A stretch of 64,000 nucleotides of DNA, taken from positions 916,476-980,475 of the forward strand of contig UYJD01000012.1 in NCBI GenBank assembly GCA_900618795.1, read 5' to 3'. Position 1 is the stretch's first letter, and each line of letters opens with the position of its first letter. Shown here one piece after another: positions 16,065-63,101 of this stretch. The notes under the pieces were generated by a model. That model did no database searches, had not been told where the DNA came from, and saw only the letters and a list, made by a program, of their open reading frames with translations. This DNA is from Cyanodermella asteris (lineage: Eukaryota; Ascomycota; Lecanoromycetes; Ostropales; Stictidaceae). Both the position numbers and the translations under genes were made by a program.

Positions 16065-16493
16065 GTACTTGTAACGCGGGCACGGGTTGGTTGACTATGT
16101 AGGCGACCAATGAAGGTCGGCGTCAAGTCTGAAGNNNNNNNNNNNNNNNNNNNNNNNNNNNNNNNNNNNNNNNNNNNNNNNNNNNNNNNNNNNNNNNNNN
16201 NNNNNNNNNNNNNNNNNNNNNNNNNNNNNNNNNNNNNNNNNNNNNNNNNNNNNNNNNNNNNNNNNNNNNNNNNNNNNNNNNNNNNNNNNNNNNNNNNNNN
16301 NNNNNNNNNNNNNNNNNNNNNNNNNNNNNNNNNNNNNNNNNNNNNNNNNNNNNNNNNNNNNNNNNNNNNNNNNNNNNNNNNNNNNNNNNNNNNNNNNNNN
16401 NNNNNNNNNNNNNNNNNNNNNNNNNNNNNNNNNNNNNNNNNNNNNNNNNNNNNNNNNNNNNNNNNNNNNNNNNNNNNNNNNNGTGACAGTACT
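16065..16493 (+). mobile_element. LTR-retrotransposon copy (solo LTR or gapped element) with 5-bp target duplication
   Basis: An element starting TGTAACG at 16070 and ending TGACA at 16488 is flanked on both sides by the direct repeat GTACT (16065-16069 and 16489-16493), as expected from retroviral-type integrase. Ends are TG...CA. The first 65 bp match, with two differences, the end of the copy at 42.2 kb in inverse orientation, so this is a dispersed repeat. The interior is a run of N (16135-16482), so whether it is a solo LTR or a full element collapsed in the gap cannot be seen. Confidence 0.75.
16135..16482. other. Assembly gap (348 N) inside LTR copy
   Basis: Run of 348 undetermined bases. 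Frames reported across it are artefacts. Its position inside a repeat suggests the assembler failed on an LTR element. Confidence 0.98.
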
Positions 16494-28727: not shown

Positions 28728-29807
28728 TCATCCGTAAACCTTCGTCCCTTGGGCCATCTGCGGCATTGCCGAGGGAGCTTTTGTGTCCGACGGCAGAACC
28801 CCCATAGGTCTGTATTGCTGTGTCTCCATGAACGCGCTTCTGTCACCTTGTGCCTGTCCCGGTTGCTGTGTGCTGGGAGCTTCAGCAGCCGGCTTTGAGC
28901 GCAACCGCTTCGTTACTAATACGGCCAACACAATCAAAGCGAAGACGGCGAAACAAGCACCAACGACGATCCCAGCAAGAGCGCCCGCTGAAAGCGAAGA
29001 CTCAGTCGCAACATTCGACGTGTCTGTTGCTATCGGTCCGTCCGTAGGCACCGATTCGTCCGTCATCGTCGCCGTCGTCGCCGTCGCCGGGAACAGGTGA
29101 GCTCTCGAGCTACTTTGCGAAGCAACCGGAAAGCCGTTTGCCTGTCTCGTCGACGTCGAAGTGATCCTCGAAACACTCGTACTTCTCGTGAAGCTGCCGG
29201 CGGTGGTTTGCGTCGCAGCCAAAGTCCCCGTATACGCAGGAGTGCCCGCCGCCAAACTCAACGCGACAGGTCTCGACTGCAGCGAGAACAGGACCCGACC
29301 ACAGCAGTCTCCCTGCTGAAGCGGAACGCTGTCGTCGTGACAACAGAGCTGCGTTACCGCGCCGTCGCAAGCCCAAAGATACGCATCTCCAGCGACGCCC
29401 CCTGTTGTGTGCCAGAACCTTCGGTCAGTAAAACCCCATGCCGACTCTCGATACGGTGTTTCGATATTTGCTCGGCTTTTCTACTTACCTGTGACGCAGT
29501 ATGCTGGACAGCCGGTCTCCCAATCCGGGTCCTGACACGACGAGGCTCGGTACAGGCCGGTGTAGTTGTACGGTCCCGGATCGGCTTTTCCGGGAAAGTA
29601 GGTCAGCGAGCCGTCGTCGTGGTTGTTCTTGTCTTGACAGAGGCCGTCGGTCACGCATGTGTCGCCGGACGGACAGCAGTAATTGCTGCCGTAGCCGCAC
29701 TCGAAGTCGTCGGTGGTTATTGTCTGGTTTTCATAGTAGCAGGTTGCAGCCGTGAAGGCGAGCCGAGTCAAGACTACTGCAAAGGGATACAGAGCGCGTG
29801 AATACAT
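28728..29807 (-). CDS. Secreted Cys-rich, Ser/Thr-rich single-pass membrane protein, two exons
   Basis: Complement of 28728..29401 and 29489..29807, 330 codons; the intron (87 nt, GTAAGT...AACAG) is phase 1. The N-terminal signal peptide (MYSRALYPFAVVLTRLAFTAA) precedes a cysteine-rich ectodomain with about 14 cysteines including CC pairs (YCCPSGDTC, QLCCHDD, DCCGRV). A Ser/Thr-rich stalk follows, then one transmembrane helix (AGALAGIVVGACFAVFALIV) and a basic cytosolic start (TKRLRSK). This layout resembles fungal wall-sensor or mucin-like proteins, but I recognise no named family. Function is unknown; surface location is a confident inference from topology. Confidence 0.75.
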
Positions 29808-42046: not shown

Positions 42047-42225
42047 CCTGTTGTNNNNNNNNNNNNNNNNNNNNNNNNNNNNNNNNNNNNNNNNNNNNNN
42101 NNNNNNNNNNNNNNNNNNNNNNNNNNNNNNNNNNNNNNNNNNNNNNNNNNNNNNCCTTCAGACTTGACGCCGACCTTCACTGGTCGCCTACACAGTCAAC
42201 CAACCCGTGCCCGCGTTACACCTGT
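42047..42225 (-). mobile_element. Second copy of the LTR element, inverted, with 5-bp target duplication
   Basis: On the plus strand the element begins TGT (42052-42054), runs into a gap, and ends CGTTACA at 42220. The direct repeat CCTGT flanks it (42047-42051 and 42221-42225). Its 66 visible right-end bases are the reverse complement of the first 65 bases of the 16-kb copy with two differences. Element size is unknown because the gap is a 100-N placeholder. It lies between the RBR-type gene and the carboxypeptidase gene and interrupts neither. Confidence 0.75.
42055..42154. other. Assembly gap (100 N) inside LTR copy
   Basis: Exactly 100 N, a conventional placeholder for unknown length. 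The true content could be a full retrotransposon. Confidence 0.98.
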
Positions 42226-42471: not shown

Positions 42472-43983
42472 TCAGATTGACACACTGAAATCCGCCGTAG
42501 AGCTCAGATTAGTCCTCCGGCCAAGCAGCACCTCCATAGCCGCAAACGCCGCTCCCGGAGAATCCGTCCAAATCTCATGACCCGCACCTTTGACAAAGAA
42601 GTACGTTAAGCCTCGATCCTCCACCCAAGCACCAACCTCACCGGCCTGCGTCTGTGCCATTGTGTTTTCCAAACCGGCCACTCGAGGGACGGCGAAGGTA
42701 TTGTCCGGATACTTATCGAAGCCCCGCTTGCCGCCCCACGTAACATTCTGAATCGCCATGAGAGTACCATTGTACGTCAGCGCCATGTCAAAGTGGCCGC
42801 TCCCGATCATCACGTTCCCGAGCGTGTCGATGACGCGCCCCAGCGTCCCATCCGCAACTGGGGGGTTGGGGTTGGAGTTGGTCAGATCGACCCCGTTGTC
42901 GAAGGGCACTGCATAGACGCAGCCAGAGAAACTGGTAGTCGGAGGCACGTGCAGAGCCTCTTTGACATCGGTCCGGTTGAAGTAGTTGGTGTTACCGGGC
43001 ACGATCGCATCTGGCGCGGCACTGTCGAGTATCACCTGTGAGATCAGCGGGCAGAATAAGGGTACGTGGTAGACGTCGAAGCAGGGGTTGGCGTCGAAGG
43101 CAGAGATGTAGGCGAGGGAGAATACGTCGCATTCGTCGCGGCTGCTGGCTTCGGTGAGGAGCGGCATTGGCTGTTGTTGTGCTGGGAACGTGAACCACTT
43201 GTTGACGTAATCGCTGATTCTGCACGATTCGTGTAGTGCTTCGAGCTGAGCGATGGTCGAGTCGTTGAGCAGTATAATGTCCTTCCATTTCAGCACAAAG
43301 GGAACGGTGTGCGCTTCTTGCTGCATGAAGCGGTCTCCGATGAGAGGCGAGTGCAGCGAGACACCTGCCAGATTGAACTTGTTCGACTCGCCGGCATCCG
43401 GAGTAGCACCGATGAATGCATCGGCAATGTAGCTGACAAAGTACCCGGCGTAAGATTCTCCCGCGAGGTAGATTTGGTAGTCCTGTACACCAAACAGCTC
43501 CATGAAATTTTCATAGAAGCAAATGAACTCCCGGGCGAGGCCTCGCTCATCAGTGATGTTCGGAGTGCCAACCGAGTAGCCGCTGCCTATCGGCTGGTCC
43601 ACATAGAGAACGTTCGTCAGACGACTAATGGCCCAAGGATTCTCCACCGGGGCGTCAGTACCAGGATACCAGACAAACGGACCATTTTCGCCGATAAGAC
43701 CCAAGAGCGAAGAGCAGCCCGGACCACCAGTCAGCCAAATTGTAATCTCCTCAGATCCGGCGGGGTTATCGGTCGGGAAGAACCAGAAGAACAGGTCTCG
43801 GGTCTCGGTTGTACCGCGTGAGATGGGCAGCATGCCGGCGAAACTTTCGGTGAGCGCGAATTCGAAACCGGGTAGCTTGTCTTTGACGAGGTAAGGTTTG
43901 GTCGAGTTGGAGAGGAACTTGTCAGCGTGGACGAGCTGCAAGATGCCCAAGAGGCCGAGAAGGAGTATCATGATTGACTTCAT
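42472..43983 (-). CDS. Secreted serine carboxypeptidase (peptidase family S10)
   Basis: 503 codons, intronless. The signal peptide (MKSIMILLLGLLGILQLVHA) is clear. S10 landmarks are LTGGPGCSSLLG (oxyanion region, about 85-95), nucleophile Ser177 in GESYAGYF, and the catalytic histidine in GAGHEIWTDSP (about residue 469); an acidic catalytic residue is expected in the NVMIGSGHFDM region. Several N-glycosylation sequons (NST, NIT, NDS, NRT, NGT, NVT) support secretion. It removes C-terminal residues, usually at acidic pH. It is 13 kb from the RiPP-like cluster with housekeeping genes between, so a role in trimming that peptide is only speculative. Confidence 0.9.
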   Translation of the reverse strand: MKSIMILLLGLLGILQLVHADKFLSNSTKPYLVKDKLPGFEFALTESFAGMLPISRGTTETRDLFFWFFPTDNPAGSEEITIWLTGGPGCSSLLGLIGENGPFVWYPGTDAPVENPWAISRLTNVLYVDQPIGSGYSVGTPNITDERGLAREFICFYENFMELFGVQDYQIYLAGESYAGYFVSYIADAFIGATPDAGESNKFNLAGVSLHSPLIGDRFMQQEAHTVPFVLKWKDIILLNDSTIAQLEALHESCRISDYVNKWFTFPAQQQPMPLLTEASSRDECDVFSLAYISAFDANPCFDVYHVPLFCPLISQVILDSAAPDAIVPGNTNYFNRTDVKEALHVPPTTSFSGCVYAVPFDNGVDLTNSNPNPPVADGTLGRVIDTLGNVMIGSGHFDMALTYNGTLMAIQNVTWGGKRGFDKYPDNTFAVPRVAGLENTMAQTQAGEVGAWVEDRGLTYFFVKGAGHEIWTDSPGAAFAAMEVLLGRRTNLSSTADFSVSI

Positions 43984-44650
43984 GTCGGTGAATAATCAGG
44001 ATGTAACCTCTTGGGAATCTTGCCAGATGTGTAGGTTAAGAACTGGAAAAAGAAAGTTTGATGGATAGTGCTATGCCCAAGCACATGCGAGAGGCTCAAT
44101 TGTTTACCTAACAGCAGATACCACCCTTGGACCTATCACCATAGTAGCCGCTAGCCTGACTCGATATCAAACAGCGAAGGGCGAATCACCGATGAGACCG
44201 GGCATGGAGATCGGCTGCCTAACAGTGAATTTGGAAGCGACCGTGCAGCTAGAAACTGGGAAGTGGCAATAAGCCAGTGGCATGTTTAGCTCAATGTCAG
44301 CAATTGTGCATATTGCGACAATGGCCGATATGGGTTGGGCATCCTGCTCTGCGTTCAACGGCCACACGTGAAGATGAAAGCCGAACTGTCTATGCGCGTT
44401 GTCAGAAGCTGTGACACATGAAAATTGCCTCGCGAACATGCAGGTACCAGTTTCTGAGTACAAGCATACATCTTGCTAAGAGATAAAAATACAGAACAAA
44501 CGCTGTGGAACACACGACCTGTTGCGAACACCGCATCTGATCCAGAAAATTGGTCGGAGTTTCGCTTGGATGCATTTAGCTAACAATGCTAGTTGGCGAT
44601 TGAGAAAAAAGTATGTAATCGTTGGTATCCAGTCACGTAGCTCATTCTGA
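43984..44650. other. Intergenic region
   Basis: 667 bp between the carboxypeptidase start and the annexin stop, both on the minus strand. Contains only short frames. Confidence 0.4.
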
Positions 44651-53960: not shown

Positions 53961-54794
53961 TCACTGTTCAGGCCGTGGCTGCTCCTCCACCCACTCAAGC
54001 ACCCGATCATAATCCCTAAAAAATCTCGCCATGTTATGATTGCGATCGGGCAATCCCCCGTCGCCCAAATCACGAAAGGTCTCAAAACTCAGATCCGGAT
54101 TGCACATCAGCGCCTGCCGCACCACGTCCGCACAGTGATCAAGGTGAGCATGCAGCAATTCCTCCGTGTCCGTAAAGAACCACGGCTCTCTGCTTTGATA
54201 GTAGCCGCGATGCGTGTACTGCCACAGTATTTTGACGCAATGTAAGTGGTGGAAGACGCCGAGGTTGGCACGGTAGCCACCGCCTTGGGCTGGTGTGAAC
54301 TGGACTGCGTCTGCGGGTGCGTCGACCTCTTCGAATTGAGTTGAGTTGATGCGGAACGGAGCGTCTAGTATCTTGGGTCAGTAATCCTCTCGATCAGAGG
54401 GACTATCTGACCAACGCTTCAAAAGTCGGTCCCAAGCTGCGTCTGCGGCTGGTCCGGGATGCCGGAATATGGCTGAGTTCTCTTCTTCGAAACGGCGCCA
54501 GACGCGCTCATTGCTCACGTGGCGGTCGTACCAGCCTGAAATTTGTGTCAGCTTTGTTCGTAAAGATTTGAATCTTTTGTGCATACTCAAAGGGCCTGTT
54601 TGCGCGTTACATTCTCTCATATTGAAGATCCCGTACAGACATATGGACAAAGAGAGCAGGAAGAAGCCCATTTGCACAGCCCAAAAACAGATGAGACCGT
54701 GGTCCGGAAAGACTCCGCGTCGAGCTGGCTCCCTGTTCTCTTCGTCTTCAAGGAGCCATCTCTCGGTGTCTGTGCTGTCGGACTTGACGGTCAT
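53961..54794 (-). CDS. UstYa-like (DUF3328) oxidase-type protein, copy 1, three exons
   Basis: Exon 1 is 54611..54794, exon 2 starts at 54535, exon 3 is 53961..54364; the exon 2 donor (near 54400-54425) is not certain. The topology is a short cytosolic N-terminus, one transmembrane helix (HGLICFWAVQMGFFLLSLSI, about 31-55), then a lumenal domain. The conserved HPGPAADAAWDRLL precedes the signature motif HHLHC (54237-54251) and a second HLDHC (54132-54146) followed by VVRQALMCNPD. Family knowledge: UstYa/UstYb-type proteins perform oxidative cyclisation of RiPP core peptides (ustiloxin, phomopsin, asperipin, cyclochlorotine pathways) and other oxidations. Both HxxHC motifs are intact. Confidence 0.82.
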
Positions 54795-55208
54795 ATTTCT
54801 TGCGACGCGGACAATATTTTAGGTGAGTTTCTATCCGGCGTACTTTGAAGGTAGAAGCGCGGTGGACTGGACGGTGGGGGAAGGTCCACCAAGCAGAACC
54901 AACTCTCCGGCAGGGCACCTTTGCACGAATAGACGAGCTGCGGGGCTCGATATGGACACTGCAGATCAGCTTTTACACTCCGAGCAACATTGATGCATCG
55001 CTGCATTCACAAAAGTTCAGAGCCGAGCTGATATGCATGGTTGCTATTTCTTGTCCGGCTCAGCAAAGCTCAGACACGAGCCTCGAATGCTGAAACTATC
55101 AAAATTGGAAAGCAACGTTATTCAGCCTTGCGGCAGATCCTACACTCCACCACACAACTGCCATTCCGTCGTACTACAGTTCTTGGCTTTTCCATGATTT
55201 ACAGCTAT
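54795..55208. other. Intergenic region
   Basis: 414 bp between UstYa-like copies 1 and 2, both minus strand; no gene seen. Confidence 0.35.
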
Positions 55209-56207
55209 CTATGGCGGCTTAGCAAAGATCTTGGAGCCCAGCGGGATCGGCAGATCGCTTCCATCAGGGGTGTCAGGGATCTCGTTCTCCTTGATCCAGC
55301 GCTCGACGGATCCAATATCACGACATTTGTGGAAAGTGTTGAAGTTGGCGTAGGGATCTGGTGTGGCAGTGATCCACTGGTGAGGGATGATACCAACGTC
55401 AGCGTTGCACATAATATTCTGACGCAAAATCTCGATGCAGTGTTCTGCACAGAATTAGCTCTGGTCTGGAGACTTCCAAGGTAACCTTACGAAGATGGAT
55501 CTTGACCGTGAAAGGGCGGTCGGTAAACACGGGCGCCATTTGCTCTGGCTTCTCTGGATTGTTGTAATAGTCTTGGTGGAGACCTTGTCGAAGCATGTTC
55601 AAACACTTATTTGCTGTCAGTCAAAGCAACTCGGCACAGAGAGCAGCCACGATTGGTCTCTTACATGCATATGATGGCTGAATTCGAGGAACCCAATGTA
55701 TCCTCCACCGTACTCCGGTGTCAGTCGAGCAGCATCTTGAAAGTGCTCCTTCGCACCAGGCAGCTTCATGAACTCGTCCTCTGGAATGGACGCGTACTTG
55801 ACATAGCCCCATTTGTCCCACGCAGCATCGAGCTCCGGGCTTGGATCGCCAGTGAACTCAGACGGATATCCTAGTGTCCCATTGAACTGAGTGAGATGCG
55901 GCGTGGGATCCATGTGCTTCAGAATCGGAGAGTACGGAGAGCTTTGGTACAAGCACATCTGGTCGATCTCTTTCTCCGACAGAGAGTGTCGACCGACGAA
56001 GAACATGGCGAGATAGCTGCCGGCCAGGACCAGCGCACCGACAGCCCAGAGGCCGTTCTTCGTAACCCGTCGGCTCCAAAGTTGGGAGGCGGGCTTTCGA
56101 AGACCGGTCACCAAGCCGTCCCGAGTGCCGGTGCAGCTCTCATCGTCGGAGTGCTCTTCATCCACTGGCTTCTCAATCGAGATGCGGCTGTACTGCTGGG
56201 CGTCCAT
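55209..56207 (-). CDS. UstYa-like (DUF3328) oxidase-type protein, copy 2, three exons
   Basis: Complement of 55209..55444, 55491..55605 and 55665..56207, 297 codons, all junctions phase-consistent. The cytosolic N-terminus (about 50 residues) is followed by one membrane helix (NGLWAVGALVLAGSYLAMFF, about 52-71). The lumenal domain contains DPSPELDAAWDKW, YGGGYIGFLEFSHHMHC and a second HLQHCIEILRQNIMCNAD. Both signature HxxHC motifs are split by introns: HHMH|C by intron 1 (GTAAGA...ATAAG) and HL|QHC by intron 2 (GTAAGG...TGCAG). Intact motifs imply an active enzyme. It lies 1.3 kb from the precursor gene in a divergent arrangement, so co-regulation from the shared region is plausible. Confidence 0.88.
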
Positions 56208-57535
56208 AATGTGTAATATGGCTGGGAGATTGAACTTCATGAGAGGTGCGGACCACAGCGGTCTCGAAGTGAGCGGACGTGATGAACCAATACAAGCGAT
56301 AGGCCAACGGCAAGAGCGAAAAGGCTCGGGAACCGATCTTCAGGGAGGATATGTAGCCCCGGACATCAGACCGACTCCTCATCGATCGCTGAAGCGTCCT
56401 GGCGAGTATCATCTTGCGGATGGCAACATCGAGGCGGGGTTCATCTTGCAGGTTTTCTTGTCCACCTCGAACGTGTCAACTCGTATGATCACACCAGGGA
56501 ACGCGTCACCACAGGGAGATCAGTGATAATGCATGACAGGCTGTGATCGCATGTCACACCGGTGGTGAGAACCAATTTGTGACGATACGATAATTCAACC
56601 CGTACGTAAGTAAAAGTGCCGAGTAAGTTTTACCCGCAGCGCTAGCGCGAAGTTTGTGTCCACGTGCCGCCATCCACTTGTTAGAACTCTTCCACATTTA
56701 CTTTCGCACATCTTCAGCTTCAAAGAGGGGAGCGTGGAGAATTTCGGACTGGTGCCATCACACCTTGCGTGGCAGTCTCTCTCTCGGCTTCATCGACTGC
56801 TCATCCGTCCTAAGATACGACATGATGTGGTCTGACGGCACGATTCTCCTCAATCATCGCCAGCTTCCGTTCTGAGCCGACCCATGTGAATCACGGGGCT
56901 GTTGCGGTCTCGATATTGTGCTGTTGACCGCTGTTTGGCGTGCGTCTAGTCGATCGGCAGCGCCAAAATGAGCGTTTTCTCAACCCCCTATATTTCGATT
57001 GTTTTCGTCAGCCGCTCCGTACTGTTCACCTGTCTGAGACGGCAGGTCCTGACACAGATCCAGAGATCCCTCAACTACTCTCTTCGAAGCTTACTGCCCG
57101 TCTCCGGTTATCCGCATTGGGTTCGATCGCAACTCACGATCCTATCCACCGCAAGCCGGTAGTTGTCTCCTCAGATCTTTTGCGGGGCCGTTGGGTCCGC
57201 AGGAACGAGCTCATCGAACACATTCCCCTCGGATGCCAAATCACGCAAGCTCGCACTACGTATGTCAGCTCTGGGAGCAGAGATCTGGGATCCCAGAAGA
57301 CCATGATATTGCAGGCGAGGACGAGGTGGGGTCCAACTCGTCCCCCTCTCGAGCCAAAGTCACGACAGAGAGTAGGTAGGAATCAACGACATTTTCGACC
57401 TCACATAAAGAAGCCTATCGTCCCCCATCCGTGTTTGCTTCTGTCGTCTTCTCTCTACTTGTGTAACTTCAATCATCCCGCTGCCCCAGTTTCAATTTTT
57501 CATACCAAGCAACTTCTTAGCTTCAAGTTGTGAAG
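56208..57535. promoter_or_regulatory. Divergent promoter region UstYa-like copy 2 / RiPP precursor
   Basis: 1.33 kb without genes. Before the precursor ATG there is a TATA-like CACATAAAG at about 57402-57410 and a long pyrimidine-rich leader (CTTCTGTCGTCTTCTCTCT region near 57437), typical of strongly expressed secreted-protein genes. No cluster-specific operator could be assigned. Confidence 0.4.
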
Positions 57536-57930
57536 ATGGTTCAAATCACTTTACTCGCTGCCTTGGCCACAGCCTTCTCCTTGGCCACCGGAGCACCGAC
57601 ACCTCACGTCCATGGTGCTGACAAGCGCACCAACATTTACCCCGGTGTCAAATACGAAGGCGACGTCGAGAAGCGCACCAACATCTACCCTGGCGTCAAG
57701 TACGAGGGCGATCTCGACAAGCGCACCAACATTTACCCGGTATCCTGGCCCAGCCGGGCGACCTCGTAGGAGATGAGCAAGCTAATAAGCATGCAGGGTG
57801 TCGAGTACGAGGGTGATGTTGAAAAGAGGACTAACATCTACCCGGTATCGGCTCCTTGAAGGTTGTCTTACAACGCAGATACTGACCGTCGTGACAGGGC
57901 GTCAAGTACGAGGGTGATATCTTCGAGTGA
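57536..57930 (+). CDS. Kexin-processed repeat RiPP precursor peptide (dikaritin-like), three exons
   Basis: Join 57536..57739, 57797..57844 and 57898..57930, 94 codons. The signal peptide (MVQITLLAALATAFSLATGA) is followed by a short propeptide (PTPHVHGAD). Four units follow, each starting after a KR dibasic site: TNIYPGVKYEGDVE, TNIYPGVKYEGDLD, TNIYPGVEYEGDVE and a last TNIYPGVKYEGDIFE before the stop. This is the layout of fungal RiPP precursors such as UstA, where Kex2 releases core peptides that UstYa-type enzymes crosslink through aromatic side chains; each unit here offers two tyrosines. Both introns (57 and 53 nt) cut at the same place, between Pro and Gly of repeats 3 and 4. The gene is flanked by five UstYa-like genes. 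The core composition matches no product I know. Confidence 0.88.
57631..57926 (+). repeat. Intragenic tandem repeat encoding the core units
   Basis: Four tandem units of about 45 coding bases encode KR-TNIYPGV(K/E)YEGD. Units 1 and 2 are contiguous; units 3 and 4 are interrupted by introns at the same codon boundary (CCG|GTATC). The third unit has Lys to Glu at core position 8. Near-identity of the units suggests recent expansion or gene conversion. Confidence 0.85.
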
Positions 57931-59074
57931 GCCATTTTTGCCTTGCGGGCATCCTCCGACCAGTCGATTGGCAACGTCTTGGACTGCCGCGAGGGCTCGC
58001 ATGCGGAGAGACGCATAGGTGTCGAAGGTCGCGTGGTTATTCATTGGACGTCTATGGCATTGCTGCATTTCAATGTTCATCGGTAGAAGCCGATGAATGC
58101 AGCAAGGCGTGAGAGGGTGAGAGCATAGTGTAGCCAAGTAAACTTGATTTCCCTTGCATCAAGCTCATCAACTTTTGTGGATTCCCTTCACACGATCCGA
58201 AGTTAATCATAGATAAGCCTTCTAGCCCGGTAAGCTAGAAGACGAATCCCGACGCCTCTCCGTATCGTGCACGGTCGTCAACCTTGGTCCACACCAACCA
58301 CACCACTTGTGCAACCTGATGATTACATCACATCAACACAGATCGGCGGATCAGCCGACTGAAGATTCACTTCATCGACACATGTGCTTGCGATTTCGGT
58401 CACTTGTGGTTTGCAGATCCATAACGTTCAGACTCCACAGATGTAGCGTCACCAAAAAGCACCCACGAATCAATAAGCACCATTTCGGAACGAGGTGAGC
58501 TATGACCACGCCGCTGACCAGCTTACAGGTCATCCTGCGCTACTGAGTCTTTAGCTCAGCCTCAATCATCCTGCAAGATCGAGTTCAGGGAGGTTGCGGG
58601 AACGGCATGAAGGCGTGGAATGTCGAAATGCTTTCTTTGGACCGCCAGCCCCTTTGGGACGGCGGGAAAGAGGTTCCATGCTCCGGTCCACTATTTCTTA
58701 CACAGCCCCAAGTTTGAATGTCCAAGAATACAATACAGATGATGTGTTGTCTGATTGTAATTGCTATCCTCACTCCCTATCCTCCTGCCGCCTTTCTTCT
58801 TCGCGCCCGCCTCCGCAGCTGAGACATGGTCGAGCTGGCTTTCACATCGGACTGCCGTGAAAGTGGGATGGCAGTGCGGGGAGAGTACGATCTCGATCAA
58901 CTCAGCTGTATTGCTATCGAGTCATCAGTGGAGCGGCTAGAAGGCAGTATCTTCGATCTTCCCCTTCTTTTCCCAGGAGACAAGTTTGCATCCGTCCCCG
59001 AGTTCTGCGCCCCTCGTCCTGTTTTGACAGCTTCAGTCTGAAGTCTCAAAAGCGTTTGACCACAATCAATCTAG
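57931..59074. other. Intergenic region between precursor and first NCNCG-type gene
   Basis: 1.14 kb, no supported gene. Frames present are short, antisense to each other and without secretion or membrane features. Confidence 0.4.
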
Positions 59075-59851
59075 ATGTCTGGTACAATGTACCAAAGAGC
59101 CAGCTCGACAGCCTCGTCCGAGTCACTGCTCGACGACAAGGCTGGCTACCCACGACGAGCACCCCCAACCCACCGTCGCTGGCTCGCGAAATGCCTTCCT
59201 AGCAGCCAGCACAGATACTATTCCGAGTCCGTTCAGACCACCTCTCACGACCGCTCTCGCTACTGGACCTTTTTTGGCAAATTTTTCCTCACCATCTTCG
59301 CCTTCTGGGGCGTTCTAAGCTTGGTCTTCCAAAGCAAACAATACGTGGACAACCACAGACCCGTCAACTGCAACTGCGGCGCCTCCATCGCAGAAGCAAA
59401 GTCAATGGGCTGCAAATACGACTCAATGGCCGCCGCCTGGTTGCCCGAGGTCTGTCGCGACGACGAACTAAACGCCGAATTCAATCGCGAGGGCCCCGGG
59501 CCGAACGGCGAGTGGCCGTACTGGTCGGATCCGCATGCAAAACACCCTTTGACGCTTGACGATATGGCTTTGTTGGCAGATAGCGGTAAGCCGTTCTTCA
59601 CGACTTGGGACTGGCATGTTGCGCACTGCTTTGGCTTCTTCAAGAAGCAGATTCGCGGCGGGTTTTCGCCGGCGAGTTTGGGAACGACGGATCCTTTTGG
59701 TCATATAGTGCATTGTCGTGAGTGAATGCGCCAGTTTTTTCCAGCGGCTTGATTGTTGATGCTGATATTGATTGCAGAGGAGATTGTGCATGGCGACCCC
59801 AACAAGCTAGTCATGTCTGGTGTTGGGCTCAACGCATCTTCCTTCACTTAA
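59075..59851 (+). CDS. Divergent UstYa-like membrane protein with NCNCG motif, copy 3, two exons
   Basis: Join 59075..59717 and 59778..59851, 238 codons; the intron (60 nt, GTGAGT...TGCAG) follows the second motif's cysteine codon. A cytosolic N-terminus of about 65 residues precedes one membrane helix (KFFLTIFAFWGVLSLVF, about 69-85). The lumenal part has NCNCGASIAEAKSMGCKYD (about 98-116), AAWLPEVCRDDEL, GPGPNGEWPYW and two HxxHC motifs, HVAHC (181-185) and HIVHC (210-214). It ends VMSGVGLNASSFT. I read this as a UstYa-related subfamily because of the single N-terminal helix and paired HxxHC motifs; the extra cysteines distinguish it from copies 1 and 2. Biochemical role is inferred from context. 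Confidence 0.75.
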
Positions 59852-60172
59852 GGGGTCGTTTGCGCAACAGAGTCACGTCGCTATGGCGGAGAGAGAAAGA
59901 ATAAACGCCCTAACAACACTGTCTTTACTTCAAAGCACGGCATGGTAGATGAAAAAGACCCAGAAATTGATCTTATACTGGCCAATGAAGCTGTATTTAG
60001 TTCCTGGTGCTACCCCCGACGGCGCCCCTTGCCTCAGGCGCCACGAGACGCACGTTCTCTCACATGTTCCCTTACACATCCCTAACATGAGGCTAAGCAA
60101 GACTAGAGGAATTTTGTGGCATGTGGCATCATATTCATCAGTCTGTTGCGAACGGAAAAGCTCAAATCATGA
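59852..60172. other. Convergent intergenic region
   Basis: 321 bp between convergent copies 3 and 4; no coding signal. Confidence 0.35.
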
Positions 60173-60937
60173 CTAATGACCGGCAAGCTCATCGTTGGTG
60201 AATCTGAGCTTCTCGGCCCAATCGAAGAGCTTCTCAAAATCCCGACACTGATGTACCTGGCCAAAGCCGTCCGGGCTGCCTTCGTCGCTACCTCGGGCTC
60301 CACTGCCACCGCCGAATCTACCTCTGAACGGCTCGAGTGAGCTGTCTGCGGAGCAGATGACGCTTTCGCGTAGATAGTCGAGCCAGTGCTTTCCGTGGCT
60401 CTCGCTTTCCAACAATGTACCATCCAGCGCCGCATAGAACTCCTTGTGCAACAAATACAGACAATGCACCTGGTGAAAGGCAGCCACGCCGTATTTTCCA
60501 GATCCATCGTTCTCTCGCGCCAAAACGAAGTCTGCGACCACTCCTGCCTCTTGGAGCTTGTGGATGGATACAAAGTCGCCTCCAGCAGGGAAGTACTTCA
60601 TTCATGCCTCGTGCGTTTTGTTGCTTGGCGCCTTGCGATACATCGGTTCGATGTCATAGACTCGGCCAATATTGCCGAGAGGTGGGAGTTCAAGCTCTGG
60701 CAGATACGCTCTCAGGGTCGAGTGAGGAGAAGAGGTGAGCAAACCCAAGTATTAGTGGAGAGCAAATGTCAGGAGTACCAACAGTGAACATGCCAGGGCC
60801 ACTGCGAGAGCAAAAGCTCGGCTTCTGAGACGTTGGAATTCATGGGAGGTGGAATGCTCGGTGTGCTCGTGGGGGAGCATTATCTGCTCATCGTCACTCA
60901 GCAACAAGCTGCGTTTTTCACGATGATGGCGAGACAT
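60173..60937 (-). pseudogene. UstYa-like gene, copy 4, with two in-frame stop codons
   Basis: One continuous frame from 60937 to 60173 is interrupted only by TAA (60752-60754) and TGA (60602-60604). The first part gives a basic cytosolic start and a membrane helix (SRAFALAVALACSLLVLLTF). The middle contains APSNKTHEA directly before the TGA, at the site where copies 1 and 2 have the AW of their PSPELDAAW-type motif. The last part has GVAAFHQVHCLYLLHKE, with intact HQVHC, then HWLDYLRESVICSADSSLEP in place of a second HxxHC. It therefore looks like a member of the family with a lost conserved tryptophan position. An unusual splice pattern cannot be excluded for the TAA. Probably a decaying paralogue. 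Confidence 0.65.
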
Positions 60938-61888
60938 GCCAGGTCGATGGGCGAGTTTCAGTCAAAGACGGGGTCTGGCCACACGAGTACTCAGAGCATA
61001 CTTCTTTCACTTGGAGGAATAGATCCGGGTAAGGAAATTCGGGGCATAGACAACTACTGGATATTCAGACGAGACTCGTCACTGTTCGATCGGGGCCGGT
61101 GACTGCCACTGCGATCTCCGTCGAGGACAGTGGGAATAACAAAGGCAATCTTAGCCGCCATCCTCAGCCGACTTTTAACGTTTTTGAGTAGAGCTTTGGT
61201 ACACGGGATGAAGCATTGGGTCAGCCACGAGGCTGTGGTCCTTCAGTGCAACTGTCGTGGCCATGGATCATCGTGGGTGGATCACAACGACGCCAAAGTC
61301 AATCTCTGGAACCTGTGCGCATGAACGAAGTGGCCGCAAGTGCCAGGGAAGAAATAATAATGGCCATTTCAGGAGTGGTGTCAACCTTGCAGTCACGTGC
61401 GCTGCGGGACGGCGACCGAGCCGTGTTTTCTGCCAACTTTAACACCAACCCTGACGAAACTTTACCGTCGACTTTACTTTCCACTAGCAGGGGTGAGCGA
61501 CCGGTAGAATATGAAAGCTTGCTACCCGCACCCTATCCCGAATACTGCAGGGTCTCGCTTCAGTTCACTGGAGACGAGCACGTTTCCAATTGCCGAGCAA
61601 TGTCTTGAAGAGGCCAACACACCAGGCCAATGGCCGTGGCAGTAGTCAGCACTGTCAAGACCGATACGCACGCCACCGTTCGCGAGTTCGGGAAAGTTGC
61701 CCTGAGATAGTTGAACCAAGAACGCTTCACGACTGAGGAATGTGCGGGGCCATCGCGGACAAGGCCAGACGCACCCACCCAGACTTTTTTTTCTCAAGCC
61801 AGTTCTTCCCTTCGTAGCATTCAGTTTCTGTTTTTCTCTACATGTCTTCTGCTGTGTGCAATCAGCAAAGTGCTGGTTGCAATCCCTC
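60938..61888. other. Intergenic region between copies 4 and 5
   Basis: 951 bp. A 72-codon minus-strand frame at 61560-61778 has a basic start and a hydrophobic helix (VACVSVLTVLTTATAIGLVC) like a UstYa N-terminus, but no HxxHC motif follows on that strand, so I do not call a gene. A plus-strand stretch with QCNCRGHGSSW near 61250 weakly recalls the NCNCG motif and may be a relic. Confidence 0.35.
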
Positions 61889-62891
61889 ATGCCTTCGAAA
61901 GCGCTGTTCGAAGGCTCGAACGGAACGGGATACGAGAAACTTATTCAGGAAGACCGACCGCTCCACGACGAAAGGCAGAGGACAGCTGCTGTAGTCGAAG
62001 ATGTACCCTTGATACCCTCCAGAGATTCAAGCAAGAGCGAACTATCACAATGGACTGCCGGGCTCATACTGCTCTGCAAGACGGTCATCATCGGCCTGGC
62101 TTTCTGGGGCTCAATATCTCTCGTACAGCCGCTTCCGTCGGATAGGTGGTCAGCTCCAGGAGTCGTCGACTGCAACTGTGGGAACAGCATCGAGGAGGCG
62201 ATAGCCAAGGGCTGCAAATACGATGCCATGGCGACATCGTGGCTCCCACCTGCTTGCAGAGACGACGAATTGGCCGACGAGTTTGACCACGCCGGGCTGG
62301 GCCCGAATGGTGAATGGGGCTACTATGCCGACCCGCATGGCAATGTCAGCTACACCTTGGAAGAGGTAGCCATGCTCGCGGCGAACGAAAAAGATGAGGA
62401 TCGGGGTTTCTGGACAACGCATGAGTGGTATGTTGAGCGCCCACAATCTCTCTCCCGGCTGATTGGAATCCATACTGACCAGGTTTCGCAGGCATATTGC
62501 TCATTGCATGTTCTACTGGCGCAAAGAAAGCAGGGCTCGACTGTTCGGCAAGTCAGGCATTGAGCAAAGCTTCTCGGGAGAATACCATACAGATCACTGC
62601 AGAAGCATTCTCTTGAGTTGCCGGCCGCTGCAAGAGATCAATACGCTGTCCCATGTTGGGCTCAATTCAGACATTCAGGGCGATGCTACCTGGTCACTCT
62701 TGTCGCAAAATGATACAAGTTACGATTCAGTCCGGGACCGTAAATACCTGTTTGTGTTTTCATCTCAGACATATGTACATCACACTACTTATGCGAGCAA
62801 ATTTGGGCGATGTGAGCCGCCATACTGCCTCGTTCCTACTCGTCAAAGTCATAGTTGCTGGGGCCCGGGCGCACTCCTGTATGTTCCGTGA
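61889..62891 (+). CDS. Divergent UstYa-like membrane protein with NCNCG motif, copy 5, two exons
   Basis: Join 61889..62427 and 62492..62891, up to 312 codons; the intron (64 nt, GTATGT...TCGCAG) splits the Trp codon before the first motif. Paralogue of copy 3: one membrane helix (LILLCKTVIIGLAFWGSISL, about 59-78), DCNCGNSIEEAIAKGCKYD (about 94-112), TSWLPPACRDDEL, GLGPNGEWGYYADPH, then HIAHC (181-185, exactly as in copy 3) and HTDHC (212-216). The conserved end resembles SHVGLNSDI near residue 240; the frame then continues about 70 residues without resemblance to copy 3, so the true 3-prime end may be spliced or earlier. Its tail overlaps, antisense, the candidate second precursor. Confidence 0.72.
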
Positions 62892-63101
62892 GTATATCAA
62901 AGAGAAACAGTGGCAGAAGCTGTTACCTCGTCGATCAAAGCCTTGCGGAACAAGTTGGATAGTACCACTGTCGGTTTCTGGGCAATGCGTGAGCACTTTT
63001 ACCTACGAGGTTCATCTCGGCTTACCAGTCTCAACGGGAATCGCAAGAGCGTTAAATGTTCCCAGGAATGCGAAGAACATCGCCCACAAAGTGGTCTGCA
63101 T
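62836..63101 (-). CDS. Candidate second small secreted RiPP-type precursor, three exons
   Basis: Complement of 62836..62876, 62927..62977 and 63027..63101 (the exon 1 end is best read as 63026), 55 codons. Two introns of 48 nt (GTAAGC...CCCAG) and 50 nt (GTAACA...TACAG) have sizes like those of the main precursor. The signal peptide (MQTTLWAMFFAFLGTFNALA) and a short acidic pro region lead to one dibasic site, RR at residues 41-42. The 13-residue tail GVRPGPSNYDFDE follows, containing one Tyr and an acidic end as in the main precursor. The second intron begins right after the RR codons. It was missed by simple frame finding. No homologue is recalled; the exon model is inferred from splice signals and phase only. 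Confidence 0.45.

What the first reader, a model, noticed from the sequence alone, without database searches (positions are those of the whole stretch)
53961..63101. Apparent undescribed dikaritin-type RiPP gene cluster
A repeat precursor with signal peptide and KR-bounded units (TNIYPGVKYEGD type) sits among five UstYa-like genes with HxxHC motifs within 9 kb. The combination is the hallmark of ustiloxin/phomopsin/asperipin-type biosynthesis, but the core sequence matches none I know, and there is no visible tyrosinase, methyltransferase or transporter. If functional it would make a new, possibly minimal, crosslinked or cyclic peptide family.
Basis: partly seen in the sequence, partly recalled or inferred. 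Interest (0 to 1): 0.93.

Follow-up and report, generated by a model that had tools for sequence, protein, structure and literature searches.

The report
Fungal repeat-peptide cluster with copper oxidases
A fungus carries an undescribed gene cluster that probably cuts a repetitive protein into small peptides and crosslinks them with copper enzymes, one set from a recognised enzyme family and one from a family that standard protein catalogues do not recognise.

Summary
The cluster is real. A 94-aa precursor (57536-57930, two introns) has a signal-like N-terminus and four KR-preceded units TNIYPGV[K/E]YEGD. Over the six unit pairs there are 28 synonymous against 2 nonsynonymous single changes, so the peptide is under selection. 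It has four relatives in Dothideomycetes, Eurotiomycetes and one unnamed source. In 16 units T1, N2, Y4, P5 and G11 never vary; the second Tyr can be L or F. Tyr4 is therefore the likely modification site.

Of the "five UstYa-like genes", three are Pfam UstYa (PF11807), one of them (D) interrupted by an in-frame stop. C and E match no Pfam or NCBIfam model. They belong to a family with two HxxHC motifs, with 8 members at 5 loci in this genome. Three loci, this one included, lie beside UstYa genes; another lies beside a repeat precursor with no UstYa found. That family is the most interesting part.

A missing tyrosinase is ordinary for such clusters, and the right edge runs into 7.7 kb of N. 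Verdict: a new member of a known kind, with a new core family and an unrecognised candidate oxidase family. No chemistry is shown.

The parts
57536..57930 (+). Precursor gene, 3 exons, 94 aa: signal-like N-terminus plus four TNIYPGV[K/E]YEGD units each preceded by KR; introns 57740-57796 and 57845-57897
   Evidence: relatives
57797..57844 (+). Exon 2 of the precursor, 48 nt, exactly one repeat length, phase 0 at both ends; both introns cut the unit at the same point (NIYP|GV)
53961..54794 (-). Gene A, UstYa family (PF11807), 260 aa, HHLHC and HLDHC; intron 54365-54415
55209..56207 (-). Gene B, UstYa family (PF11807), 297 aa, HHMHC and HLQHC, each motif split by an intron (55606-55664, 55445-55490)
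59075..59851 (+). Gene C, 238 aa, Pfam-less double-HxxHC family (HVAHC, HIVHC) with an N-terminal hydrophobic stretch; intron 59718-59777
60173..60937 (-). Gene D, UstYa family (PF11807) interrupted by an in-frame stop at 60602-60604; first motif HQVHC, second HGKHW
61889..62891 (+). Gene E, same family as C (HIAHC, HTDHC); intron 62428-62491; the C-terminal end of the model is uncertain

Best explanation
This is a fungal RiPP cluster of the Kex2-processed repeat precursor plus UstYa kind. The precursor enters the secretory pathway (signal-like N-terminus read from the sequence, no predictor run). Membrane-bound lumenal oxidases UstYa A and B, and probably the double-HxxHC proteins C and E, use a two-copper centre and O2 to oxidise Tyr4 of each TNIYPGV unit, most likely joining it to a neighbouring side chain (Val7 is my first guess, since position 7 is V or I in 16 of 16 units). 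Kex2 cuts after KR, a carboxypeptidase trims the ends, and a small crosslinked peptide is secreted. Shown: repeats, conserved units with an excess of synonymous change, UstYa membership of A, B and D, the double HxxHC of C and E, and repeated co-location. Inferred: splicing, processing, copper chemistry, the crosslink and its position. The role of D is doubtful because its frame is interrupted.
For: Repeat precursor with KR sites and strong constraint on the unit. Relatives with the same TN[IS]YP units in Periconia, A. alliaceus, P. hordei and an unnamed source. Three PF11807 genes within 4 kb of the precursor. C-family genes lie by UstYa genes at 3 of 5 loci, the window included; chance about 1.5e-4 if 2.5% of the genome lies within 10 kb of a PF11807 hit, or 0.0037 for 2 of 4 without the window. 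They also lie near repeat precursors at C19 and C5. The model of C's relative P0004 is fairly confident (mean pLDDT 80.1; 13 of 18 ten-residue blocks from residue 61 on over 90) and puts each HxxHC on its own helix, as described for the copper UstYa protein CctR (PMC12435403). A published survey ties this layout to cyclised peptides (PMC7329392).
Against: No expression, proteomic or product data. Synteny with other species could not be tested. D is interrupted and could mark a decaying cluster. Homology of C and E to UstYa rests on the motif: hhalign probability 46.6 for one pair of alignments and 18-30 for three other pairings, and masking the six motif columns removes the similarity. The C-family model has no PDB match (best E 3.6), and the UstYa model failed (pLDDT 37.6), so the folds could not be compared. 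C-family genes at C15 and C5 have no UstYa near, and no precursor was seen at C6 or C15. No C-family hit was named from Periconia or A. alliaceus. 6,120 of 7,878 such precursors in fungi have no UstYa neighbour, so unmodified peptides may be common.
Confidence: 0.75

Rival explanations
1. The precursor makes linear secreted peptides (hormone or pheromone-like); the neighbouring oxidase genes serve something else.
For: Most Kex2-processed repeat precursors have no UstYa neighbour (6,120 of 7,878). Tyr9 is not conserved.
Against: Pheromone precursors almost never have UstYa neighbours (three exceptions, PMC7329392 abstract); here three UstYa and two C-family genes flank the precursor. Tyr4 is invariant in 16 of 16 units.
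Confidence: 0.13
2. The cluster is a decaying remnant: one UstYa gene is broken and the genes lie next to an assembly gap; no product is made.
For: In-frame stop in D inside the region of homology and a Trp in place of the Cys in its second motif.
Against: A, B, C, E and the precursor are open in the spliced models, and the units keep their sequence with 28 synonymous to 2 nonsynonymous single differences. The stop could be a strain allele or a sequence error.
Confidence: 0.12
3. C and E are not oxidases but accessory proteins (scaffold, chaperone or assembly partners) of the UstYa enzymes. This rival is compatible with the main reading of the cluster.
For: They match neither Pfam nor NCBIfam families, and profile similarity to UstYa depends on the HxxHC columns alone.
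Against: All four His and both Cys of the two HxxHC motifs are invariant in 12 of 12 members of one alignment down to about 20% identity and in 16 of 16 of another; the fragment P0014, left out of both, departs. In CctR, alanine mutants of these residues lose all activity (PMC12435403). One family member at C5 sits by a repeat precursor with no PF11807 hit near.
Confidence: 0.35

Closest known systems
Dikaritins: ustiloxin, phomopsin and asperipin-2a clusters (precursor plus UstYa/DUF3328)
   Same: Signal-like N-terminus, KR-bounded repeat units with Tyr, UstYa genes within a few kb; asperipin-2a is cited as a cluster with only its single ustY-type gene as signature and as an example of clusters without tyrosinase (PMC12048977 passages)
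   Different: Core TNIYPGV is unlike the EDYXI motif of ustiloxins and phomopsins (PMC6339444 section 10); no tyrosinase on the contig; two genes of another double-HxxHC family
Epichloecyclins (GigA)
   Same: Multicore Kex2-type precursor; a Tyr-Ile crosslink is described as likely in PMC9233826 (passages)
   Different: Different core (recalled, not compared here); Ile3 is Ser in 2 of 16 units, so an Ile3 link is unlikely to be universal
CctR, copper-dependent DUF3328 hydroxylase
   Same: HxxHC(x)nHxxHC, one N-terminal transmembrane helix, lumenal helical domain (PMC12435403, part 1 of 3 and passages read)
   Different: Acts on a non-ribosomal peptide; C and E do not match the DUF3328/UstYa Pfam model
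Kex2-processed repeat proteins (KEPs) at large
   Same: The precursor fits the description; 1,758 of 7,878 KEPs have DUF3328 neighbours (PMC7329392)
   Different: The TNIYP core was not found in the held papers; their supplementary tables were not read

Membership tests
Kex2-processed repeat protein (KEP) | Signal peptide then repeats between KR sites | tested here: met
   (signal peptide judged by eye and by a simple rule, no SignalP)
Dikaritin-type cluster (class-defining enzyme DUF3328/UstYa) | UstYa (PF11807) gene beside the precursor | tested here: met
   genes A and B; both have two HxxHC
Dikaritin-type cluster (older five-gene definition) | Tyrosinase gene in the cluster | tested here: not met
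   8 tyrosinase matches in the genome, none on contig C18; 7.7 kb on the right is N
Dikaritin-type cluster (older five-gene definition) | Methyltransferase, transporter or peptidase gene | tested here: inconclusive
   24 ORFs or gene models were scanned, not every ORF. None is a methyltransferase; a serine carboxypeptidase (13.5 kb left) and MFS transporters (26 kb left, and beyond the N run on the right) lie outside the cluster; the right side is partly unreadable
Dikaritin (product class) | Oxidatively crosslinked core peptide | not testable with these tools
   needs LC-MS/MS and gene deletion
UstYa/DUF3328 (for C and E) | PF11807 match | tested here: not met
   no match at E<=1; neither gene among the 68 matches
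UstYa/DUF3328 (for C and E) | HxxHC(x)nHxxHC | tested here: met
   motif helices 180-196 and 209-221 in the model of relative P0004
UstYa/DUF3328 (for C and E) | Single N-terminal transmembrane helix | tested here: inconclusive
   hydrophobic stretch seen by eye and a long helix 62-95 in the model of P0004; no transmembrane predictor was run
UstYa/DUF3328 (for C and E) | Same fold as UstYa | tested here: inconclusive
   hhalign probability 46.6, lost on motif masking; UstYa model too poor

The most novel reading that the evidence does not exclude
C and E stand for a second family of dicopper peptide oxidases, separate from UstYa in sequence, that modifies Kex2-processed repeat peptides with UstYa here and alone at other loci (C5, where a member sits by a KIDRR-repeat precursor with no UstYa found). 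Searches that look only for DUF3328 would miss such clusters.
Probability: 0.3. Interest if true: 0.75.

Novelty: new member of a known kind. Interest (0 to 1): 0.5.

Why it matters
Five UstYa-type products were counted in a 2022 review (PMC10512285 passages) against 1,758 predicted precursors with UstYa-family neighbours. A core family found in two fungal classes (Dothideomycetes and Eurotiomycetes), with one invariant Tyr, is a good target for product discovery. If the C/E family proves catalytic, genome mining keyed to DUF3328 misses a class of peptide oxidases. The precursor also looks like a case of repeat growth by whole exons: exon 2 is one unit in phase 0.

Tried and rejected
Tyr4-Tyr9 crosslink as the shared chemistry: rejected as general because position 9 is Y, L or F across 16 units. 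Ile3 as obligatory partner: disfavoured because it is Ser in 2 of 16 units. Chance clustering of motifs: disfavoured. A tyrosinase elsewhere on the contig: none on C18. Fold matches for the C family: none of note in PDB (best E 3.6) or among viral proteins (best E 3.8); the second aligner was not ready. UstYa structure: model too poor to use. Solved relatives by sequence: none of note for either family (best E 0.59; best E 0.47). I recalled, and did not verify, that InterPro groups proteins like C under a 'phomopsin biosynthesis associated' heading; a search for that phrase and its codes listed no relevant paper among the 15 of 126 shown, which matched another word. If true, the family would be known by association but not by function. 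The survey of other precursors covers 10 regions of 20 kb, 8 of them with a UstYa hit out of 34 UstYa loci in the genome, so it is not genome-wide. The strict caller found precursors in 5 of the 10 regions (C5:1320k, C7:1606k, C10, C11, C13); of these only C5:1320k and C10 passed its signal rule. It missed C19 and C7:186k, which I accept by eye from the looser scan, and it also reports other-frame artefacts at C5, C10, C11 and C13. The looser scan reports further pairs at C6, C5:76k, C7:1594k, C10, C13 and window 29619 that I take as spurious.
Full report
What is there. The window is G000:C18:916476-980475 of an unnamed 28.5 Mb genome, fungal by its gene content. At 57536-57930 a gene with two introns that look well formed by eye (57740-57796, 57845-57897) encodes 94 aa: a hydrophobic N-terminus, then four units TNIYPGVKYEGD, TNIYPGVKYEGD, TNIYPGVEYEGD and TNIYPGVKYEGD, each directly after KR. 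Summed over the six unit pairs, which are not independent, there are 28 synonymous single differences over 46 sites and 2 nonsynonymous over 170, with one two-base codon pair (Lys/Glu) set aside. Both introns cut the unit between NIYP and GV, and exon 2 is 48 nt, exactly one unit.

Relatives. Two searches of 5.8 billion proteins gave four relatives at E<=1: Periconia macrospinosa P0001, Aspergillus alliaceus P0002, an unnamed P0016 and Penicillium hordei P0017, the last weak (E 8e-4). Over 16 units with TN[IS]YP (window 4, P0001 4, P0002 3, P0016 4, P0017 1), positions T1, N2, Y4, P5 and G11 are invariant; position 3 is I (14) or S (2), 7 is V (15) or I (1), 9 is Y (8), L (4) or F (4), 12 is D (12) or E (4). 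Degenerate units of P0002 and P0017 lacking TN[IS]YP were left out of this count. No second copy was found in its own genome. The core strings were found in no relevant paper of the held library; supplementary tables of the surveys were not read.

Enzyme genes. A, B and D match PF11807 at 118, 168 and 73 bits (for D only its HxxHC exon was given). D is interrupted by a stop at 60602-60604, and the family match runs across it; an unpredicted intron could in principle avoid it. C and E match nothing in Pfam at E<=1 or NCBIfam at E<=10. Thirteen relatives of C were found, including Kalmusia, Aspergillus tanneri and Byssothecium. In a 12-member alignment, down to about 20% identity, both HxxHC motifs are invariant, as in the 16-member alignment A5. 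Left out of A4 were E, seven of the thirteen relatives and the third C19 member. E keeps both motifs. P0014, a fragment, has HRGKC in place of the first motif and ends there; the third C19 member shows only the first motif in its open frame. The genome has 68 PF11807 matches at 34 loci, and the window locus is among the larger ones (4 matches from 3 genes).

Is the C family tied to such clusters? With four queries the genome shows 8 members at 5 loci, a lower bound. The nearest PF11807 match is in the same cluster (C18), 615 bp (C19), 731 bp (C6), 334 kb (C15) and 1.24 Mb (C5) away. The fraction of the genome within 10 kb of a PF11807 match is 2.5%, so 3 of 5 has a chance of about 1.5e-4, and 2 of 4 without the window 0.0037 (a binomial estimate that ignores uneven gene density). 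At C5 a repeat precursor (SGKIDRR units) lies 1.4 kb from the C-family gene; about 2.2 kb of N nearby could hide another gene. At C19 a precursor with NIDTDFAYFIFKR units lies 3.4 kb away. No precursor was seen at C6 or C15. Control DNA without UstYa (53 kb of the window and 30 kb of L009-L011) gave no strict call; the looser scan gave one spurious hit in the window at 29619 and was not run on L009-L011.

Is the C family UstYa? Profile comparison gives probability 46.6 and E 2e-4 for A4 against A3, aligning both HxxHC motifs. The other three pairings give 18.1, 19.1 and 30.5. Reversed profiles give 0.06-0.33. Column shuffles reached the observed score in 1 of 150 (A5-A6, one outlier of 133) and 0 of 150 (A5-A3). 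Masking the six motif columns drops the probability to 0.35 and 0.06. The model of relative P0004 (not of C itself, whose spliced form the tool does not take) has mean pLDDT 80.1 and pTM 0.63: a helix at 62-95, and HxxHC 183-187 and 212-216 each on its own helix. It resembles no solved structure. The UstYa model from six sequences is unusable (pLDDT 37.6). So the shared motif is shown; shared fold and chemistry are inferred.

Context. Left of the cluster lie a DNA polymerase alpha/epsilon subunit B gene, an ankyrin-repeat gene and an unassigned ORF; the ankyrin gene looks like Rmt2, a methyltransferase of basic metabolism (recalled, not tested). Right of 64000 come 7,700 N, then GH16, GH5 and sugar transporter genes. 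No tyrosinase match lies on contig C18.

Comparison with the literature. DUF3328 proteins are described as binuclear copper enzymes, and the HxxHC residues are needed for activity of CctR (PMC12435403: part 1 of 3 and passages read). In a survey of 1,461 fungal strains, 1,758 of 7,878 repeat precursors had DUF3328 neighbours, at a mean distance of 3.09 genes, and 341 tyrosinase genes were counted among the 15 closest genes (PMC7329392: abstract and section 7). Dikaritin definitions have moved from a five-gene set to DUF3328 as class-defining (PMC12048977 passages). Nine such clusters were reported in Venturia inaequalis (PMC9632046 passages). By these standards the window cluster is a new member of a known kind; the unrecognised C/E family is what could raise it.

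Noticed in passing
G000:C5:1320150-1320629 (L026): Repeat precursor with AVSGKIDRR and AESGKIDRR units beside a C-family gene (C5:1318047-1318799) and no PF11807 match near.
   Followed up: partly
G000:C19:882291-889298 (L021, L022): Repeat precursor with NIDTDFAYFIFKR units, two UstYa genes and three C-family genes within 7 kb.
   Followed up: partly
G000:C10:155.8 kb, C11:1405.5 kb, C13:322.2 kb, C7:186.2 kb, C7:1606.3 kb: Five further repeat-precursor candidates (units like SLAPLHKNYNSDYSTEKR, ETDEDLAKFGRR, HKEITEADDS..LLNYRR, TQIAEGWKRHEE, AAPYAPAVDAWLVDDVEKR) close to UstYa genes; only C10 passed the simple signal rule.
   Followed up: partly
window 60173-60604: In-frame stop in gene D; the second motif of D is HGKHW, and a UstYa gene at C10 (L006) also lacks the Cys of motif two (HRMHG), so that Cys may be dispensable in some members.
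   Followed up: no
window 42475-43995: Serine carboxypeptidase (PF00450, 204 bits) 13.5 kb left of the precursor, outside the cluster.
   Followed up: no
G000:C18:980476-988175: 7,700 N directly right of the window, so the right edge of the cluster cannot be read.
   Followed up: no
window 16135-16482 and 42055-42154: Two runs of N inside the window.
   Followed up: no
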